DNA of 64,000 nucleotides, from assembly GCA_943736015.1 (NCBI GenBank), contig OX031057.1:42122501-42186500 (forward strand). Direction: 5' to 3'. Of the stretch, positions 8,314 through 43,317 are shown in pieces. The notes beneath the pieces are model-generated. The model was given only the letters and a program-made list of their open reading frames with translations, was not told the origin of the DNA and made no database searches. The stretch's first letter is position 1. Each line of letters begins with the position of its first letter. Source of the stretch: Tridacna crocea. Taxonomy: Eukaryota > Mollusca > Bivalvia > Cardiida > Cardiidae. Made by a program: the position numbers and the translations under genes.

Positions 8314-9462
8314 TCACCACGGAGGCGGGTCGTAGCTGTAACCAAACATGTCAAAGTCCACACTGTACACCTCTTTAATCCCTTCTATAATCTCAGAATC
8401 TACCGTCTTGTAATACATATTAAACGCGCTTTTTCTTTGTAAAGATCTCGCAGTCTTCGTTAAAGGATAAGTTGCACGAGCGTCATTTAAAGCCGCTCGA
8501 AAAATGTTCGTTTTTTGATAATCGTCCTGGCTTTTATATCGGTCATGTGGGAAAAGGGCTCTATCCGAAATGAAACCTTGAATTTTTAAAGCGTCCCACA
8601 ATCGCCTTGTGACTTGTTCCCATGTTTGACAATCTAGGGCATGCCGATGGTTTTTGAGAGTGACATAGTCTAATACATCATCAGCAAGTGAAAAACCGGT
8701 CCAGTTGGCTTCCAGCTGCATGACTTTTAAAAGAACATCAAGTTTGTAAGGCTCTAACTTGGTTTGATTGATGGTGAAGTAAAAATCATCATTCAAGGTT
8801 TCTTGTTTTAAGACAAAAGAAGGATTGATCTCACAGGGTTTGCACAGGTAAAAAACTGGAGACCAATGGTAATCAAAAATACCACGTCGGGTGTTTCTTA
8901 CGACAAACTGCAAAAACTCCGAGAAAGTTATCTCTGATTTACATTTTGGATCTATTTCTCCCCTGACGGATATAGATGTTGATGGAGTGTACATACGGTC
9001 TATGTATGCAGAAAATAGTCTTGTATAAGGATTTCTCGCTGAAAGTATCATTCGGGTTGATTCACTCTTTAAGTTTTTTACACCATGTACAAGATGTTTA
9101 TTCTCCAAGGTATGAATGCCTTCTCTATATTCAGTCAACACATCTTTGATTGCTCTCCCGTCGTGGTGAAGGATATAAAAAAACTGAGCCATACGCGTGG
9201 AACCAATCTTTCCAATTTTACAATATGACCAGTTGTACTTTGAAGCTTGGTAAAATACGGGGTTGTGTATCTGATAGCCTGCTGAGGTCAACATTTTTCT
9301 GTATTTATCGCAAGTTTTATTGACTTTAACAAGTCTGTCTCTTTGGATGTCTTCATGACCTTGTTTGTTCGTACCTTTTGATGTTTTTCCAGTAGATACG
9401 CTTCCAATGCTGTAGATGTTTGGGAAAATATGTATGACTTCTGAAATGAGAATTTTAAACAT
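8314..9462 (-). CDS. Carbohydrate sulfotransferase (Golgi chondroitin/dermatan/HNK-1 type)
   Basis: Single-exon frame of 382 residues. Seen: a 5'-phosphosulfate-binding loop at residues 80-91 (YCKIGKIGSTRM), a 3'-phosphate-binding motif at 143-156 (RNPYTRLFSAYIDR) and a C-terminal FGY motif near 374-376, in the order used by the Sulfotransfer_2 family (CHST8-14 relatives). Such enzymes move sulfate from PAPS to sugar hydroxyls of glycosaminoglycans or glycoproteins in the Golgi lumen. Length fits the family (about 350-420). The start is the first ATG after an in-frame TGA; residues 3-20 are only moderately hydrophobic, so a true type II anchor could lie on an unseen upstream exon. A foldback element (8044-8233) begins 80 bases past the stop and may be in the 3' UTR. 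Acceptor sugar cannot be told from sequence; family call is firm. Confidence 0.9.
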   Translation of the reverse strand: MFKILISEVIHIFPNIYSIGSVSTGKTSKGTNKQGHEDIQRDRLVKVNKTCDKYRKMLTSAGYQIHNPVFYQASKYNWSYCKIGKIGSTRMAQFFYILHHDGRAIKDVLTEYREGIHTLENKHLVHGVKNLKSESTRMILSARNPYTRLFSAYIDRMYTPSTSISVRGEIDPKCKSEITFSEFLQFVVRNTRRGIFDYHWSPVFYLCKPCEINPSFVLKQETLNDDFYFTINQTKLEPYKLDVLLKVMQLEANWTGFSLADDVLDYVTLKNHRHALDCQTWEQVTRRLWDALKIQGFISDRALFPHDRYKSQDDYQKTNIFRAALNDARATYPLTKTARSLQRKSAFNMYYKTVDSEIIEGIKEVYSVDFDMFGYSYDPPPW

Positions 9463-9860
9463 CTTAACAACGTCAGTGTTTTCTTCACGTCGTCATGAAA
9501 AACGCCAACTTTATTTCATCCTTTCCGGTAGGTTATCGAGGGATATTGGTGAAATATTTTTCGATATTTCAAGGTTACGACCAGTGAAAATACTGATTTT
9601 TGGTATTTTAACTCTTCAACTAAAGGCGGAAACAGCTATTCCCGCGCACTAGTTACCTAGTAGGTAAAATGAGCGTGCCTCGCAAACAGATGAAAATATT
9701 TAGCTTACATTTCTCTTGCTTCACGTAATGTTGTAGTGTGTTGCTACCCGAAGGAGGAACCCCACGGGGAATATCCGAACAGAACTGTACTGGATTTTGA
9801 TTTGTCTCCCCCCCCCCACCCCTTAAAAGGGTTATAAGCATGAAATTAATAGAATATATA

Positions 9861-12240: not shown

Positions 12241-13041
12241 GGTGCTCCAAGTCATCCACTTTAAACCTTCAACACCACCGCCTTACAAACCTCGATCCCT
12301 TGTTCGGACATTTTGGTAGTCCTACCTGGCTCATTGGTAAAGTGCGGAACACATAACCTAGAAAGCATGTGTTCTAGCTGCACTGGAGGCACTTGTCTTT
12401 TTTTTTTTTAGCTCACGCGAACACGAAGTGCCCAAGGTGAGCTATTGTGATCGGTCAATGTCCGTCGTCCGTCTGTCCGTTCACAATTACAAAAAAAAAA
12501 TCTTCTCCTCCTAAACTAACAATCAGATTTCAATCAAACTTCAAAGAAATGATCCTTAGGTCATGTTCTTTCAAAATACATCAAAGAATTGAAATCAGTG
12601 ATGAACTCTGGTTGCCATGGCAACTGAGTGAAAAAAAAACTTTAAAAATCTTCTTGTCCCAAACTGTTAGGGCTAAAGCGTTCATATTTGACATGTAGCA
12701 TCATCTAGTGACCTTCTACCAAAATACTTCAAATTATGGCGCTGGTGTTGAAATTGGCCCTATGTTGTGGGTTCTCGGATTTACCAAAGAGATAAAGAAG
12801 GAAATCTTTAAAAATCTTCTTGTCCCAAACCCTAAGGGCTAAACCTCTCATGTATGACATGTAGCGTCATCTAGTGGCCCTCTACCAAAATACTTCAAAT
12901 TATGGCGCTGGTGTGGAAACTGGTCCTATGTTGTGAGTTCTCGGATTTCACATAAGGATAAAGAAAAAATCTTTAAAAATCCTCTTGTCCCAAACCCTAA
13001 GGCCTAGAGCTCTCATATATGACATGTAACATCATCTAGTG

Positions 13042-13578
13042 TGTTACGGGAGACCACTCCTTCCTGCATGGCATTCTCCCGATTTAAATACAATACCTGG
13101 CTACTGCGTCAGGGAGATATCTCTTTGGCTCAGTGGTTAGGGTATTGGCTTTGCGTCCGGGAGTTCGGAGTTCGAATCCCGCTCCGATCCTTATTTTTGC
13201 CATGCATTTATTCATTTGTTTCTTTGTTACGGGCTCGTTCGTAAGATGGGGGCTCGTCCGGGATTGGCCGGGATTGGCCATTGAGCCATTAATCCCATTT
13301 GTTGTCCAAAATCGGACTTCCTGCCTAATAAGGCTTTGAGTCATCAATAAATGATGACTTTAAGAGGGGGTGTGTTACGGGAGACCACTCCTTCCTGCAT
13401 GGCATTCTCCCGATTTAAATACAATACCTGGCTACTGCGTCAGGGAGATATCTCTTTGGCTCAGTGGTTAGGGTATTGGCTTTGCGTCCGGGAGTTCGGA
13501 GTTCGAATCCCGCTCCGATCCTTATTTCTGCCATGCATTTATTCATTTGTTTCTTTGTTACGGACTTCGTTCGTAAGA
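13042..13578 (+). mobile_element. Miniature LTR element (TRIM) with tRNA-like LTRs
   Basis: 537 bp fossil-type LTR kin that looks structurally whole and non-coding. LTRs 13042-13246 and 13373-13578 start TGTTACGGGAGACC. Primer-binding site TGGGGGCTCGTCCGGGAT (13247-13264) matches the tRNA-Pro site known from gammaretroviruses; a purine tract TTTAAGAGGGGG ends at 13370. AGTG flanks both sides (13038-13041, 13579-13582). LTR similarity suggests a fairly recent insertion. Confidence 0.85.
13121..13192 (+). promoter_or_regulatory. tRNA-like region with Pol III A and B boxes in the TRIM LTR
   Basis: A box TTGGCTCAGTGG and B box GAGTTCGAATCCC at tRNA-like spacing, then CGCTCCGATCC. The same region occurs in the other three LTRs (about 13452-13522, and on the minus strand 34591-34662 and 34915-34986). 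Not called a tRNA gene because the acceptor stem does not pair. Confidence 0.7.
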
Positions 13579-13870
13579 AGTGGCCCTCTTATAAAAATAC
13601 TTCAAATTATAGCCCCAGTGTGGAAAATGGCCCTGTGTTGTGGGTTCTCGGATTTCACAGAGAAATAAAGAAGGAAATCTTTAAAAATCTTCTTATCCCA
13701 AACCGTAAGGGCTAGAGCTTTCATATTTGGCATGTAGCATCATCTAGTGGCTCTCTACCAAAATACTTTATTATGGCGCTGGTGTGGAAATTGACCCTAT
13801 GTTGTGGGTTCTCATATTTCACATAGTGATAAAGAAAAAACCTTTAAAAATATTGTTGTTTACACTTTAA

Positions 13871-32600: not shown

Positions 32601-35600
32601 GCTCTTACCTTTGAAATGTAGAGTAGAGAATTAGGATCAAATTTGACACTGAATTGTTCCCCTTGGTATTCTATGTAATTTTCTATCAGAAAGGTTGGGC
32701 AGAGAGCTGGTGGTTCTTTATTGTCAATTCTCTTTCTCCCAAATCTTTCATCCCATTCTGGTCCACTTCTATAGGTCATTGTAGCTATCTCCCTGAGATT
32801 ATGGGAGAAAAGGAAAAGTTGATTGAAGAATGCCATACTGAACCAAATGGAGGATCTTACATGAGAGTTCATACTAGTATTTTATCATTTGCATCAAACA
32901 AGTTGACTGACATTTATATGATCCGAGCCTTGGCTAGCCTGTAATGCATATATTTTGGTGAAACAGGTTGGTGAAAGTAATAACTACATGTACATATATA
33001 CATATATACATGTAGGCCTATACAAATAGTCTTTTTAATACATTATTTTCTATTTTATTACCATTTATATTCATCACATAAAACAAATTGCAAACAAGTA
33101 TCCCATATCATCACTTAAACCTATTACTATCCAGGTGTCAGTGGCAAAATGTAGTTCAATTTGAAATGTGTACTATACACATGAAGAGAGCTCTGTGACT
33201 TTTACATCGAAAGTAAAACCTCTTATTTCACTCATGATTTAGTTTTGATTGGATTCAGATTGTAGTTTAATTTTAGGTATGAGTGGCTGACAACCAGTGA
33301 AACCAACCACAGGAAAATAAGAGTCATTACTCTACTGTATTCATGTGGAAAGTTTTATGATTTTCATGTCATAAATGGAGAGAAAGCCATGTCATAAATG
33401 CAGAGAAAGCCACTTAAAATCATAAAAATTGTATAAATACATTGATTTACTTCCTTTATTTGCCGTCTTATTTTACTATTGCAGATGACGAAATGTGTCT
33501 CCGTCCATGTAGTTTTTCTTCAAAGGGGAGAAAGGTGAGACAGAGGAAGGCTGTTGCATTTTCTTTTTTCTCCTTTCTCATTTATGAAAAAAAACTTTTC
33601 TTCAGGATTGTCAAAATATTGAAAAGTATAGTAAATAGCTAAAGACAGAAAAATAGCCTACCTAGCAAGTTTCATTCCCATTTTGGGATAAGCACCTTTG
33701 TAATAATGTCCTTTATTCCAGTTTGGGTCAGTCATTATACACTTTCTTTGTAAATATCTCATGGCTATTGATGATGGATGACTGTGTGCACATGATGATA
33801 TAGAGATCATTCTGAAATAGAAACATGACAGTTACAGCATGATGGTAGAGGGATCTGATAATGTACACTTGGTACTATACACATCATTCTGGAATGTAAA
33901 CATGACAAAGAACATATGGTGGTATAGAGATTATTCTGATATGCAAACATGAGAGAACATAATTATGGTGGTATAGAGATCATTCTGAAATGTAAACATG
34001 ACCATAAAATAATGAATACTGTGGTATAGAGATCATTCTGAAAGGTAAACATGACCATAAACATAATAAATATTGTGGTATAGAGATAATTCTGAAATGT
34101 AAACATGACCATAAACATAATGAATATTGTGGTATAGAGATTATTCCTATATGTAAAAACGAGAGAACATATGGTGATACAGAGATCATTCTGAAAGGTT
34201 AACATGACCATAAACATAATAAATATTGTGGTATAAAGATCATTCTGAAATGTAAATATGACTGTGAACATATGGTGCTGTAGAGATGTGAGTAGAGAAA
34301 AAGGATCATTTTGAAACATAAATATGACTATGAGCACATGATGATAAAAATATCATTCTGAAACATAAACACAACTGTGAGCAGATTACTGATACTGAGA
34401 TCATTCTAATATATTGACAATGATATGATGATATACAGCTCATTTTTAAATAATCTATAACTGTAAGTGCACAGTGTTTTAGTGATCCAGCTGCAATAAA
34501 AACATGAAACCCTTGAAATACTTACTGCTCTTACGAACGAAGTCCGTAACAAAGAAACAAATGAATAAATGCATGGCAGAAATAAGGATCGGAGCGGGAT
34601 TCGAACTCCGGAACTCCCGGACACAAGACCAATACCCTAACCACTGAGCCAAAGAGATATCTCCCTGACGCAGTAGCCAGGTATTGTATTTAAATCGGGA
34701 GTATGCCATGCAGGAAGGAGTGGTCTCCCATAACACACCTCTTCTTAAAGTCATCATTTATTGATGACTCAAAGCCTTATTAGGCAGGAAGTCCGATTAT
34801 TGGACAACAAATGGGATTAATGGCTCAATGGCCAATCCCGGACGAGCCCCCATCTTACGAACGAAGTCCGTAACAAAGAAACAAATGAATAAATGCATGG
34901 CAGAAATAAGGATCGGAGCGGGATTCGAACTCCGGAACTCCCGGACACAAGACCAATACCCTAACCACTGAGCCAAAGAGATATCTCCCTGACGCAGTAG
35001 CCAGGTATTGTATTTAAATCGGGAGTATGCCATGCAGGAAGGAGTGGTCTCCCATAACACTGCACAAACTAGAATTGTGAGAAAAGGTGATTACATATTA
35101 TTGGCTAGTGTGCAAGTGTTTCGATAGAGTATATGGATGTTAAACCCCTAGCACTCTTACTTATAAGGTTGCATTGATGGGGAAACAATTACTGACTTAT
35201 GCAACAGACCAATGCTATGTTAGACAGATGTTCAAACCTAGAATTCACCAACAAGAAAGATTTTGCTGAAGGGGAGATCATTATGGACTCATAAGGGCAG
35301 AACTTAACGGAAACTGTGTCTAGCAATATCAGAAAACTGATAAAGTTTTAAACATCTATGTGTATGTTCAATGACTATCAGAAGGACAAATAGGCAGTTA
35401 CCATTACTCAAGAAAATGTGTAACAAAATGATAATATTTGAAACATTTGTTTTTTATGGGTAATTTCTTCTTTTGCTAATAATGTTTTTGTAAGTGACAC
35501 CACAAAAAATAGTTGTCGGCAGCAGATTTTTTACAAGATCACACTGCACAAGGCAACAAATTTACACTGCAGGAGGTAGAAAGTTTACATTAGGGTAATT

Positions 35601-41600: not shown

Positions 41601-43317
41601 GTGTGATAAAATATTTTGTGATAACACAAGATCATTATGCGATGTCATTAGAATTCTGTTAACGTCTTTTTATTCCTAACTTTAAATAGTAAGTGCATCC
41701 TATCATTCTTTATTAACTATATTTGTAACACTTCCAACCTTATGATTACCAATGCTAAAATTCATATCATTCTGTTGTGCCATATCAACAAGATTCTGCA
41801 TTTTAAGATATTTTTCATGCAATGCTAATCATTAATAAAACAAATTCATTTCTTTTTAAATGTCTGATTAACTATTATTCTCGTGTGTTATTCTTATAAT
41901 TATGGGGTTTATCTAAGGAAAACAGGTATGGTTAACAACAAGATAGAATTTCTGCTTTATTATTCACCACACCACCTAATTTGGAACTTGTCCAAATTGA
42001 AAGCATTTGCAAACGGCAATTTAAATGTAGCTAAAATATTCGGACTCACTTGAAAGAAAACATAGTAGGAAAAGCAGTAATACTGGTTGGCAGTGTTTTT
42101 TTTTTTTACTTTTCGACAATGTTTTCAATTTAACACATCTTTCCCAGGGTAATTTAAACCCCGCATTGTGTGCTATAGGGTTACTATACAATATACATTA
42201 TTATACCTCATGACTTCTAGCATGTGAACTTGCAGATAAGCCTGCATGAATAATAACTGCATTGTCTTTAGCATCATTCAGTTCCCCCCACGTCTCATAG
42301 GCCACACTAAGTTCTGGTAACACAGCATTGTTGTACTTCATTCGGAACGGGTATTCTGTTTTGAAAGTTTTGAAACCTGAAACTATCTTCCGGTACTCTG
42401 GTTCAGGTCCAGTTGCCTGACTGAAAAGGGGGAAAAGTTGAAAAAAGAAAAAAACATTTATTTTTCGCTGAATATTACAATCATTTGAAATGTTTTGAAC
42501 CATTCACTAAACAATCCATGTGGAGTAAAGCTTTTGAAAACATGGTGGAAAAGAGATGATGCTGGAAAACTCAGTGTATAGACTTGTAAGCACTAGCCAC
42601 CATCAGACCATAATTCCACTTTGTCTGATATTCTTTAGTAAGTTCTTTCCAAAATAGAATCAGATTTTCAAAAAATATGCTCTTACAACTCTTTCCATAC
42701 CATACACAACACCAGCAGCTTTTGTGGACAGTATAGATCAAGACCAGACTGCACATTCTACACTGATCTACTCTGTCCAATTCTATATATTCTAGATTAT
42801 GACCATGCATGGCTTCACCCTGAACTAAAAACAATAGGGACTGTAATACCTAACAACTGTGTCAGGAAGAATTCTATTTAGCTCAGGAGTTACGGTGTTG
42901 GCCTTTCATCAGAACATTCTAGTTTTGAATCCTGCACAGTCCCTTTATTCTGCTAGGCATTTGTTTATTTATTTCTAAGTTACAAACTTCGTCCGTATAG
43001 ATGGTTCTTTGGCAAAAAGTTATAGGGTAATGTTCTATAAATTATGAATCTTACTTTCTCATCAAACATGGAAATTCTGTCTCCATTCCACGAAAGACCA
43101 GAAGGTCGTTCTCTGGCACTTTGAGCTGTGGTAGGTCTGCAAAGTCTTCAGCTAATTTCACATTCTCTAAAGATTGGAGTTTCCCACTGGATCCAGATTT
43201 AGAGGAACCATGGACCTTCTTCACACCACTTGTACTAAATACACAAAACCTTGGTTGAAAGCCACTTTGGTTTCTGGAGGCACAAGTCCTTACTAGGGAT
43301 CTCACTGCTGATCTCAT
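29690..43317 (-). CDS. MetX-family homoserine/serine O-acyltransferase, ten exons, probably mitochondrial
   Basis: Exons in transcript order: 43317-43055, 42420-42207, 40905-40793, 37995-37962, 37018-36932, 35684-35605, 33811-33662, 32792-32609, 31598-31445, 29787-29696. All introns are GT-AG and all phases agree, giving 457 codons. The protein is an alpha/beta hydrolase: a YETWGELN strand, the GWWE..VGPG..DT segment, nucleophile elbow GSSLGG (Ser245), acid in [11 protein letters not shown] (Asp408) and base in YGHDTFLLD (His442). The family acylates the hydroxyl of homoserine (methionine route) or serine (cysteine route). The SINP-TG and GHY-type segments look closer to the serine-acylating branch (serine O-acetyl/succinyltransferase), which is inference. 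Residues 1-33 are Arg/Ser-rich without acids, like a mitochondrial presequence. Either the frame reads through the last donor to TGA at 29692-29690 or a short last exon was missed. Confidence 0.9.
29696..29787 (-). CDS. Acyltransferase exon 10 (catalytic histidine)
   Basis: 92 bases, residues 427-457: [19 protein letters not shown] then [12 protein letters not shown]. His442 completes the triad. The exon ends AAG before GTATGA. If that is not used as a donor, translation adds Val and stops at 29692-29690; if it is used, a few C-terminal residues lie on an exon I could not find. Confidence 0.9.
29900..30131 (+). mobile_element. Family A MITE
   Basis: 232 bp, TTAA at both ends, in intron 9 of the acyltransferase, 113 bases from exon 10. 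Confidence 0.85.
30613..30777. mobile_element. Family H foldback MITE, second copy
   Basis: CCCTATTCACCAACCATTGT start and inverted end, GTAACACAA-TTGTGTTAC-type centre; in intron 9. Confidence 0.72.
31195..31411 (-). mobile_element. Family A MITE
   Basis: Near-complete; its L arm ends about 34 bases from the exon 9 donor. Confidence 0.78.
31445..31598 (-). CDS. Acyltransferase exon 9 (catalytic acid)
   Basis: 154 bases, residues 376-426 plus one base: [11 protein letters not shown], then [15 protein letters not shown] and QQRELSDLL. The Asp in TDILFP (residue 408) is the triad acid. Confidence 0.93.
31670..31905 (-). mobile_element. Family A MITE
   Basis: 236 bp with TTAA at both ends, 72 bases upstream of exon 9 in transcript sense. 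Confidence 0.83.
32175..32330 (+). mobile_element. Family A MITE, degraded
   Basis: L arm (AAATCAAGTGCATTTGCAG) and worn hairpin in intron 8. Confidence 0.55.
32609..32792 (-). CDS. Acyltransferase exon 8
   Basis: 184 bases, residues 314-375: [20 protein letters not shown], then a lid segment ending [18 protein letters not shown] and LLYISK. TYRS, RFGR and FD-NS are family signatures. Confidence 0.93.
33662..33811 (-). CDS. Acyltransferase exon 7
   Basis: 150 bases, residues 264-313 with split codons at both ends. Reads [18 protein letters not shown] then [18 protein letters not shown]. The acceptor and the first exon bases (TTTCAG then AATGATCTCTATA) are the source of the minisatellite in the intron just upstream. 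Confidence 0.92.
33798..34440 (-). repeat. Minisatellite of about 12 units, derived from the exon 7 splice acceptor
   Basis: Units of roughly 45-70 bp sharing GTATAGAGATCATTCTGAAA followed by TGTAAACATGACCATAAACA. In transcript sense each reads ...CATGTTTACATTTCAG/AATGATCTCTATAC, the same as the true exon 7 acceptor at 33811. All extra units lie upstream of the real acceptor, in intron 6. Confidence 0.85.
34529..35059 (-). mobile_element. Miniature LTR element (TRIM), second copy
   Basis: 531 bp; LTRs 34853-35059 (5') and 34529-34735 (3'), the same primer-binding site at 34835-34852 and a purine tract before the 3' LTR. CTGC flanks both sides (34525-34528, 35060-35063). Lies in intron 6 of the acyltransferase. 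Looks whole; the two LTRs are nearly the same, so it is young. Confidence 0.85.
35605..35684 (-). CDS. Acyltransferase exon 6 (nucleophile elbow)
   Basis: 80 bases, residues 238-263 plus two bases: [12 protein letters not shown] then [14 protein letters not shown]. The G-x-S-x-G elbow places the catalytic serine at residue 245. A family A MITE starts about 24 bases upstream of the acceptor. Confidence 0.93.
35708..35940 (+). mobile_element. Family A MITE, diverged
   Basis: Complete layout, worn ends; next to the exon 6 acceptor. Confidence 0.72.
36336..36560 (+). mobile_element. Family A MITE, diverged
   Basis: Begins inside a poly-A run; hairpin centred near 36473. Confidence 0.68.
36664..36898. 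mobile_element. Family F foldback MITE, diverged
   Basis: Same layout, many CpG-to-TpG/CpA-type changes, in intron 5 beside exon 5. Confidence 0.7.
36932..37018 (-). CDS. Acyltransferase exon 5
   Basis: 87 bases, residues 209-237, [15 protein letters not shown] then [14 protein letters not shown]. Matches the family's FP-V-DMV-AQ-LLD-LGI block just ahead of the nucleophile elbow. Confidence 0.92.
37326..37485. mobile_element. Family A MITE, symmetrical S-S form
   Basis: Both sides of the hairpin carry the S arm (ACAATCCC-type start; GTATGGTAAAGGGTTAA end). A broken L-arm piece, 37170-37325, lies directly before it. Confidence 0.75.
37740..37890 (-). mobile_element. Family A MITE, degraded
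   Basis: Hairpin and part of the L arm, ending 72 bases before exon 4. Confidence 0.6.
37962..37995 (-). CDS. Acyltransferase exon 4 (34-base micro-exon)
   Basis: Only 34 bases, residues 197-208 ([12 protein letters not shown]). It exactly fills the family's GS-GP-S-P-TG segment between exons 3 and 5 and keeps phase 2 to 0, so it is convincing despite its size. Confidence 0.88.
38139..38621 (-). mobile_element. Family A MITE interrupted by a second copy
   Basis: Outer element is 38139-38327 plus 38547-38621, ending in GTAAGAGTTAA. The gap is filled exactly by the copy at 38328-38546. Confidence 0.78.
38328..38546 (+). mobile_element. Family A MITE nested in another family A copy
   Basis: 219 bp, TTAA at both ends, opposite orientation to its host; strong stem. 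Confidence 0.85.
39026..39243 (-). mobile_element. Family A MITE, diverged
   Basis: S arm, AT-rich hairpin and L arm recognisable; end reads AAGAGCTA. Confidence 0.7.
39351..39952 (+). mobile_element. Three family A MITEs in tandem, same orientation
   Basis: Copies at 39351-39566, 39568-39775 and 39775-39952. The first starts with TTAA, the last ends with TTAA at 39949-39952 and lacks the outer part of its L arm. Confidence 0.78.
40161..40370 (-). mobile_element. Family A MITE, diverged
   Basis: Hairpin shortened on its left side; L arm scrambled towards the end. Confidence 0.68.
40402..40606 (+). mobile_element. Family A MITE, half hairpin lost
   Basis: TTAA at both ends; the sequence jumps from GCTGGTT straight into the S arm. 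Confidence 0.8.
40793..40905 (-). CDS. Acyltransferase exon 3
   Basis: Residues 160-196 plus two bases, reading [15 protein letters not shown] then [19 protein letters not shown]. This is the highly conserved GWWE/GPG/DT.-FFVIC.NSLG block of the family. Confidence 0.93.
40944..41170 (+). mobile_element. Family A MITE
   Basis: 227 bp with TTAA at both ends, 39 bases upstream of exon 3 in transcript sense. Confidence 0.85.
41171..41959. other. Intron 2 sequence, no exon seen
   Basis: Contains an inverted pair GATAAGATTTTATTAAATGA / TAATAAAATTTTATATCATG near 41262-41362 and AT-rich sequence. Confidence 0.5.
41960..42183 (+). mobile_element. Family A MITE, diverged
   Basis: Complete layout with a weak hairpin; ends 24 bases before the exon 2 donor side. 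Confidence 0.68.
42207..42420 (-). CDS. Acyltransferase exon 2
   Basis: Residues 88-159, from [11 protein letters not shown] to [10 protein letters not shown]. Holds the family strand ending in [10 protein letters not shown] and the following [15 protein letters not shown] segment, which forms the oxyanion region. Flanked on both sides by broken family A MITEs. Confidence 0.92.
42499..42575 (-). mobile_element. Family A MITE fragment
   Basis: S arm and half hairpin in intron 1, close to the exon 2 acceptor. Confidence 0.55.
42715..42810. repeat. Repeat I fragment
   Basis: GCTTTTGTGGACAGTATAGA then TCAAGACCAGACTGCACATT, in intron 1 of the acyltransferase. Confidence 0.5.
42838..43000 (+). 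mobile_element. Old solo LTR fragment of the TRIM family
   Basis: Recognisable TRIM-type LTR middle and end (TTTAGCTCAG, AGTTTTGAATCC, ACAAACTTCGTCCGTA), without internal region. Much more diverged than the two whole copies, hence older. In intron 1 of the acyltransferase. Confidence 0.6.
43055..43317 (-). CDS. Acyltransferase exon 1 (presequence and linker)
   Basis: Start ATG at 43317; codes residues 1-87 and two bases of 88, then donor GTAAGA. The first 33 residues hold six basic and no acidic residues, then comes a Ser/Gly/Lys-rich linker. A pyrimidine-AG at about 43372 suggests a 5' UTR intron; this is weak. Confidence 0.88.

What the first reader, a model, noticed from the sequence alone, without database searches (positions are those of the whole stretch)
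13042..13578. Miniature LTR element whose LTR contains a tRNA-like Pol III promoter
Seen: two direct repeats of about 205 bp, 4-bp flanking duplication, an exact tRNA-Pro-type primer-binding site next to the left repeat and a purine tract before the right one, with no coding capacity. Inside each repeat sits an A box and B box at tRNA spacing. Known: most TRIMs use Pol II LTRs; plant Cassandra TRIMs carry 5S rRNA promoters. Inference: this is an animal, tRNA-based analogue, a SINE/LTR hybrid that may be transcribed by Pol III.
Basis: partly seen in the sequence, partly recalled or inferred. Interest (0 to 1): 0.85.

Follow-up and report, generated by a model that had tools for sequence, protein, structure and literature searches.

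The report
Helenus mini-retrotransposon with tRNA-like promoter
This is a very small, non-coding copy-and-paste element of the already described Helenus type, and malformed copies of it elsewhere in the same genome mark where its RNA probably starts, which fits a tRNA-style promoter.

Summary
Window 13042-13578 is a TRIM: two ~205-bp LTRs, an 18-nt PBS of tRNA-Pro type, purine tract, 126-bp interior, AGTG target duplication. The family is large (2,856 PBS-junction and 7,825 A-box hits, controls 0). Of 75 fetched copies or arrays with intact ends, 66 have an exact 4-bp duplication (chance 0.6%). Thirty exact A-box hits (19 elements) all lie in such LTRs, none in a plain SINE. The kind is known: Kojima 2024 named it Helenus and left Pol III use unproven. 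New here: (1) 55 of 58 intact copies lack TTTT, the Pol III stop signal (one unit: 3.25 expected, P=0.008); (2) 38 loci carry a perfect palindrome centred on GAGATATCTC, the mirror image 2; the six palindromic loci read are head-to-head R-U5 repeats, which I take for integrated self-primed strong-stop cDNA, placing the RNA start 9-12 nt before the A box; (3) one locus joins a Helenus R-U5 dimer and PBS to a Ty3/Gypsy element, with TTAC at both outer ends, suggesting a helper (2.4 kb between the two pieces unread). Pol III transcription remains an inference.

The parts
13038..13041 (.). left target-site duplication AGTG, in a ~166-bp tandem repeat
13042..13246 (+). 5' LTR (TGTTACG...CGTAAGA)
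13091..13147 (+). imperfect inverted repeat across the U3/R border; as RNA a near-perfect hairpin, -32.4 kcal/mol, z -7.4
13114..13123 (+). 10-bp palindrome GAGATATCTC, inferred RNA start site (R would begin here)
   Evidence: inference
13126..13136 (+). A box TGGCTCAGTGG
13168..13179 (+). B-box-like GAGTTCGAATCC
13194..13198 (+). TTTTT run in the 5' LTR only (TTTCT in the 3' LTR); one other of 58 copies has the same run; would stop Pol III about 80 nt after the inferred start
13247..13264 (+). primer-binding site TGGGGGCTCGTCCGGGAT (tRNA-Pro type)
13265..13361 (+). short non-coding interior, with a 9-bp tandem duplication; this copy is 537 bp, the other 39 scored full-length matches 527-530 bp
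13362..13370 (+). polypurine tract AAGAGGGGG
13373..13578 (+). 3' LTR
13445..13454 (+). palindrome GAGATATCTC in the 3' LTR
13457..13467 (+). A box in the 3' LTR
13499..13510 (+). B-box-like in the 3' LTR
13579..13582 (.). right target-site duplication AGTG
34529..35059 (-). second full copy in the window (each LTR 95.7% identical to this element's 5' LTR), flanked by GCAG on both sides

Best explanation
[quoted passage not shown] Proposed cycle: Pol III binds the A and B boxes in the 5' LTR and starts at GAGATATCTC, 9-12 nt before the A box (inferred); with no TTTT in most copies it reads through PBS, interior and 3' LTR into the flank (inferred); a tRNA-Pro primes first-strand synthesis at the PBS (recalled pathway); helper RT and integrase finish the cDNA and insert it with 4-bp duplications (duplications shown; helper inferred from one chimeric locus and the shared PBS). 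Some first-strand strong-stop cDNA primes itself at its palindromic 3' end, and the resulting inverted R-U5 dimers are integrated alone or used as an aberrant 5' LTR (inferred from junctions). The window copy has TTTTT after its B box and, if this is right, cannot make full-length Pol III RNA.
For: Shown: LTR/PBS/PPT anatomy and 4-bp duplications; 8 of 11 end-intact solo-LTR hits and 5 of 5 tandem or rearranged ones also have exact duplications. A box TGGCTCAGTGG counted 113 times in 58 intact copies (116 LTRs). In 14 divergent stretches from 7 loci, identity to the window is 0.90 in the A box, 0.85 in the B box, 0.72 between them, 0.80 upstream. TTTT absent from 55 of 58 copies; for one 322-bp period of copy L002, 3.25 runs expected, none seen, P=0.008; AAAA not avoided. 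Palindromes: 38 exact loci against 2 for the mirror image (one more at 1 mismatch) and 0 for another centre at up to 1 mismatch. L122 and L124 are free-standing inverted R-U5 dimers with exact duplications AGAC and ATCG; L123 matches 3 of 4. L009 has the same dimer in place of its 5' LTR, with TTTT on both sides if its last base is taken as mutated. L120/L125: TTAC at both outer ends, Helenus dimer + PBS at the left, Gypsy sequence inside, Gypsy LTR end at the right.
Against: No RNA data. The B box of the young copies is mostly AGTTCGAATCC (106 of 115 counted), whereas the canonical form as recalled, GGTTCGANTCC, prevails in diverged copies (13 of 14 stretches have G at that base). A stretch outside the boxes is as conserved as they are (13214-13231 at 0.90). 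The start site is read from cDNA junctions and would hold for any polymerase that starts there. The exact-palindrome search could find only junctions of that form; L009, L117 and L120 alone were met independently. The normal LTR already has an imperfect palindrome there, which favours fold-back whatever the RNA end. The helper rests on one chimeric locus read in two pieces with 2,371 bases between them unread, and both junctions read inside its Gypsy part look rearranged.
Confidence: 0.75

Rival explanations
1. Helenus-type TRIM by anatomy, but transcribed by Pol II; the tRNA-like stretch is an inherited SINE fragment without present function.
For: Pol II is the rule for LTR elements (recalled); the young copies' B box departs from the canonical form; no RNA evidence; the tRNA fold is gone.
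Against: A box counted at 113 of 116 young LTRs and 0.90 identity in 14 divergent stretches; TTTT avoided, AAAA not; inferred RNA start directly before the A box, so that the boxes would lie inside the transcript.
Confidence: 0.2
2. A tRNA-derived SINE whose tandem pair here only looks like an LTR element.
For: A and B boxes at tRNA-like spacing.
Against: 30 of 30 exact A-box hits read (19 elements) are in LTRs of this element; 53 of 59 simple LTR-interior-LTR copies carry exact 4-bp duplications; PBS and PPT are in the right places; most intact copies end at CGTAAGA rather than in a tail.
Confidence: 0.01
3. The palindromic copies are not strong-stop products but come from DNA-level hairpin repair or fold-back at the imperfect U3/R palindrome, so they say nothing about the RNA start.
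For: The normal LTR has a long imperfect inverted repeat at exactly this place (13091-13147, z -7.4), and mirror-image palindromes exist (2 exact loci and 1 with one mismatch, not read).
Against: The inverted arm runs to the U5 end, far beyond the 57-bp inverted repeat, and then meets a 4-bp duplication in L122 and L124 and probably L009; the U3 bases expected next to the centre are missing in all six palindromic loci read, though three of the six were fetched because they matched the perfect palindrome; the ratio of the two directions is 38 to 2.
Confidence: 0.25

Closest known systems
Helenus (Kojima 2024, PMC10886601; parts 1-5 of 6 of the text read)
   Same: TRIM with tRNA-like A/B-box sequence in the LTR, PBS and PPT, 4-bp duplications in animals, tRNA-Pro PBS among bivalve families, thousands of copies and tandem arrays in zebrafish, Gypsy helper suspected, mostly unable to encode a tRNA.
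   Different: Whether this exact family is in Kojima's supplement could not be checked. A TTTT test, palindromic R-U5 insertions and a Helenus-Gypsy chimera are not in the parts I read.
Cassandra (plants; PMC7215508, passages read)
   Same: TRIM with an RNA-gene promoter in the LTR; tandem LTR-interior arrays.
   Different: 5S rRNA promoter instead of tRNA; its abstract speaks of conserved Pol III terminators, while this family avoids TTTT.
biv-TRIM (bivalves; PMC6934838, parts 1-2 of 5 and passages read)
   Same: Small LTR element of bivalves with repeats of 202-218 bp, solo repeats and tandem arrays.
   Different: 77-80-bp interior, no unambiguous PBS; the words 'polymerase III' and 'box' do not occur in its main text.
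Ty3/Gypsy elements with a SCAN domain in gag (the name Gmr1-like for such elements is recalled)
   Same: L114 shares the 18-nt PBS and a similar LTR end (CGTAACA against CGTAAGA); proposed helper.
   Different: Protein-coding; L114's upstream 1.5 kb, LTR included, has no hit with the Helenus LTR; 5 bases between LTR end and PBS in L114. Its pol domain order was not established.

Membership tests
TRIM | two LTRs, PBS next to the left one, PPT before the right one, under 1000 bp, no coding capacity | tested here: met
TRIM | short target-site duplication on integration | tested here: met
   66 of 75 end-intact copies or arrays, 4 bp exact
Helenus | tRNA-derived sequence with A and B boxes inside the LTR | tested here: met
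   A box TGGCTCAGTGG 113 in 116 LTRs, B-like AGTTCGAATCC 106 and GGTTCGAATCC 9; Rfam tRNA model not matched; Kojima too reports that few families could encode a tRNA
Helenus | 4-bp duplication in animal families | tested here: met
Helenus | PBS shared with Gypsy elements | tested here: met
   L114 has the identical 18-nt PBS followed by a gag frame with a SCAN domain; one locus read closely
Helenus | sequence relation to a published Helenus family | not testable with these tools
TRIMp3 (TRIM transcribed by Pol III) | demonstrated Pol III transcription | not testable with these tools
   only indirect evidence:
tRNA-derived SINE | tailed single unit, LINE-type insertion | tested here: not met

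The most novel reading that the evidence does not exclude
The genome keeps a class of insertions not found in my literature searches: integrated self-primed dimers of first-strand strong-stop cDNA ([U5'R'][RU5], both ends U5, 4-bp duplication), alone or as a substitute 5' LTR. They act as fossil 5' RACE and place the RNA start of a Helenus element directly before its A box, in effect showing an internal, Pol III-type promoter in an LTR element; the same aberrant dimer became joined to a Gypsy cDNA, recording helper and parasite in one particle.
Probability: 0.53. Interest if true: 0.7.

Novelty: new member of a known kind. Interest (0 to 1): 0.5.

Why it matters
Kojima left open whether Helenus is really a Pol III element. 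The palindromic insertions turn that into a test that needs only genomes and can be repeated in every host with Helenus families: the symmetry centre should lie just before the A box each time. The chimeric locus gives a concrete helper family to test.

Tried and rejected
Plain SINE reading: rejected for the copies sampled. Chance tandem: rejected. Functional tRNA gene: rejected. Splicing as the cause of the ~350-bp gap in the Gypsy part of L120: rejected in favour of a template switch at the 10-nt repeat TGTCTTTTGA, since the junction shows no GT/AG. I first took RNase H next to the LTR in L125 as a sign that integrase precedes RT; on checking, RNase H runs into the LTR block exactly at TATAAAAGGAAAA, which may be another template switch, so I withdraw that. 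The pattern ACA+PBS found 4 sites, all diverged Helenus copies. Of the 23 sites I read 8; only L114 and L120 showed the Gypsy gag; L117 has the palindromic dimer, PBS and an unidentified interior. Host: COX1 on contig C31 with 3 TGA codons read through, and a frame upstream on the same strand that I recognise by eye as ND1; I infer a bivalve but could not name it. The hairpin at 13091-13147 is strongest in the window copy and weaker in 8 diverged copies, with one pair showing compensatory change; I do not claim selection on it.

Literature on integrated strong-stop dimers: searches (6 papers; 8; 0; 5), open-access library only. Of these I saw passages of PMC5445492, PMC6934838 and PMC5371799, the rest by listing.

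Counting notes: 1,110 loci at up to 3 mismatches is inflated, because the normal LTR is 4 mismatches away; I use the 38 exact loci. I read 5 of the 38 (L009, L120, L122, L123, L124) and one 1-mismatch locus (L117). The mirror loci were not read. The T-run count leaves out one of 59 simple copies, L010 (old, LTRs 85% identical). The first box-conservation figures (21 stretches) included 7 palindromic stretches and were replaced (14 stretches, 7 loci; one of them, L061, was fetched by an exact A-box match). The A-box and PBS genome counts use different mismatch limits (3 of 26 and 2 of 25).

Full report
WHAT IS THERE. It sits in a ~166-bp tandem repeat. The window lies on contig C2 of an unnamed 1.05-Gb genome. 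A second full copy lies at 34529-35059 on the minus strand with GCAG on both sides.

FAMILY. The PBS-junction 25-mer has 2,856 hits with up to 2 mismatches, and a 26-mer over the A box 7,825 hits with up to 3; the reversed control patterns have 0. That is about 2.7 A-box hits per PBS junction; the limits differ, but an excess over 2 is what a mix of full copies and solo LTRs would give. From 112 loci I got 95 element groups after removing exact duplicates (some of the incomplete ones may be copies cut by a locus end); 75 had both ends intact, and 66 of these have an exact 4-bp duplication: 53 of 59 simple LTR-interior-LTR copies, 8 of 11 solo-LTR hits, and 5 of 5 tandem or rearranged ones. Random pairing of flanks gives 33 of 5,550. 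The sample is biased to intact copies, since loci came mostly from best DNA hits, exact PBS-junction hits and exact A-box hits, the last two on contig C1. The 30 loci fetched by exact A-box match come from 19 elements and all lie in LTRs of this element; 4 are solo LTRs. Median LTR-LTR identity is 99.5% and 24 of 59 pairs are identical, so the family moved recently.

PRIOR WORK. Kojima 2024 (PMC10886601; parts 1-5 of 6 read) defines Helenus: TRIMs with a tRNA-like sequence in the LTR, 4-bp duplications in animals, bivalve families with PBS for tRNA-Pro among others, likely moved by Gypsy elements. The paper says a functional Pol III promoter cannot be concluded without experiment. A 2026 meeting report repeats the finding in passing (PMC12859917, two passages). 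So the kind is known. In molluscs Kojima reports Helenus from bivalves of the subclass Pteriomorphia; my host looks like a bivalve (inference) but I could not place it.

TERMINATOR TEST. Pol III stops at runs of T (recalled). In 58 intact copies, 55 have no TTTT and 3 have one each: L001 (the window copy), L090 and L098. For copy L002, dinucleotide shuffles give 5.8 on average and never 0 in 2,000; this overstates the case because the LTR counts twice. For one 322-bp period from start to start, 3.25 are expected and P(0) is 0.008. AAAA is not avoided (1 seen, 0.57 expected in the period). The window copy has TTTTT at 13194-13198 in its 5' LTR only; one other copy has the same run.

PROMOTER BOXES. 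In the 58 copies (116 LTRs) the A box TGGCTCAGTGG was counted 113 times; the B box is AGTTCGAATCC 106 times and GGTTCGAATCC 9 times. In 14 divergent stretches from 7 loci, identity to the window is 0.90 in the A box, 0.85 in the B box, 0.90 in GAGATATCTC, 0.72 between the boxes, 0.80 on the U3 side and 0.75 after the B box; but 13214-13231 also reaches 0.90. The boxes are conserved but not alone in that.

PALINDROMIC COPIES. L009 and L120 were found without looking for palindromes: each has, in place of the 5' LTR, the reverse complement of the LTR from its U5 end back to GAGATATCTC, followed by the LTR from there to the U5 end. A perfect 30-mer of this junction occurs at 38 loci; the mirror image made from the U3 side at 2 exact loci and 1 with one mismatch; another possible centre, ATGCAT, at 0 with up to 1 mismatch; the form with an older A box at 1. 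Three of the 38 were fetched for this: L122, L123 and L124 are stand-alone inverted dimers of up to about 258 bp, with no PBS or interior match, ending in TCTTACG...CGTAAGA, with flanks AGAC/AGAC, GATT/AATT and ATCG/ATCG. L009 has TTTT on both sides if its last base is counted as mutated. L117 has one mismatch in the palindrome. Arm identity in the five exact ones read is 93 to 98%.

READING. First-strand strong-stop cDNA ends at the RNA 5' end. If that end lies in GAGATATCTC, two such ends, or one folded back, can pair and prime each other without a loop, giving exactly [U5'R'][RU5]. Extended into the tRNA primer it would carry a PBS end and could stand in for plus-strand strong-stop DNA in the second transfer, giving L009. 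Pairing of at least 4 bases limits the start to 13114-13117, 9 to 12 nt before the A box at 13126. The boxes then lie inside the RNA, as in a Pol III gene. This is inference from junctions; it does not by itself name the polymerase. The steps of reverse transcription are established for LTR elements (Ty3, passages of PMC5371799); the self-priming step is my proposal. I found no report of such insertions in four searches of the open-access library.

HELPER. Searching for the PBS not followed by the Helenus interior gave 23 sites; 8 were read. L114 is a Gypsy-type element with the same 18-nt PBS, an LTR ending CTCGTAACA and a gag frame with a SCAN domain. L120 begins after TTAC with a Helenus R-U5 dimer and PBS, then continues as a relative of L114 (94.5% identity over 1,309 bases). 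L125, read separately 2,371 bases further on, has RT and RNase H running into a block 96.7% identical to the L114 LTR, which ends CTCGTAACA and is followed by TTAC. I read this as one insertion with a Helenus end and a Gypsy end; the matching TTAC supports it (4-bp matches by random pairing 0.6%), but the middle was not read. Two junctions inside the Gypsy part look like template switches: one at the repeat TGTCTTTTGA, one at TATAAAAGGAAAA. A 321-base query from this Gypsy's leader and gag gave 1,850 first-look candidates; the 39 other scored places match at 98-99% over about 248 bases, so a recently active helper is plausible.

VERDICT. Membership in Helenus is well supported. Pol III transcription is likely but unproven. 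The palindromic insertions and the chimeric locus are the part a specialist would want to follow.

Noticed in passing
13091-13147: Long imperfect inverted repeat across the U3/R border; as RNA a 57-nt near-perfect hairpin (z -7.4), stronger in the window copy than in 8 diverged copies compared. It looks like an old inverted copy of the tRNA-like 5' half.
   Followed up: partly
12633-13041 and 13574-13850: Element sits inside a ~166-bp tandem repeat that continues on the right side.
   Followed up: no
34529-35059: Second full-length copy on the minus strand, duplication GCAG.
   Followed up: yes
42845-42983: Old LTR fragment, 70.5% identical to the element's LTR over 139 bases.
   Followed up: no
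L024, L026, L035: Tandem arrays LTR-interior-LTR-interior-LTR (three or four LTRs) with a single outer 4-bp duplication.
   Followed up: partly
L117, L119, L050, L072: Diverged copies whose tRNA-like stretch has an extra ~20-base insert, hairpin-like (CCTCGAAAAACGAGG) in several of them, between the A and B boxes.
   Followed up: no
8314-9492: Open frame of 392 aa on the minus strand, Pfam Sulfotransfer_2 (E 1.4e-23).
   Followed up: no
L113: Mitochondrial-type COX1 in a frame of 624 aa from stop to stop under table 5, longer than the 436-position Pfam domain, with what looks by eye like ND1 upstream on the same strand.
   Followed up: no
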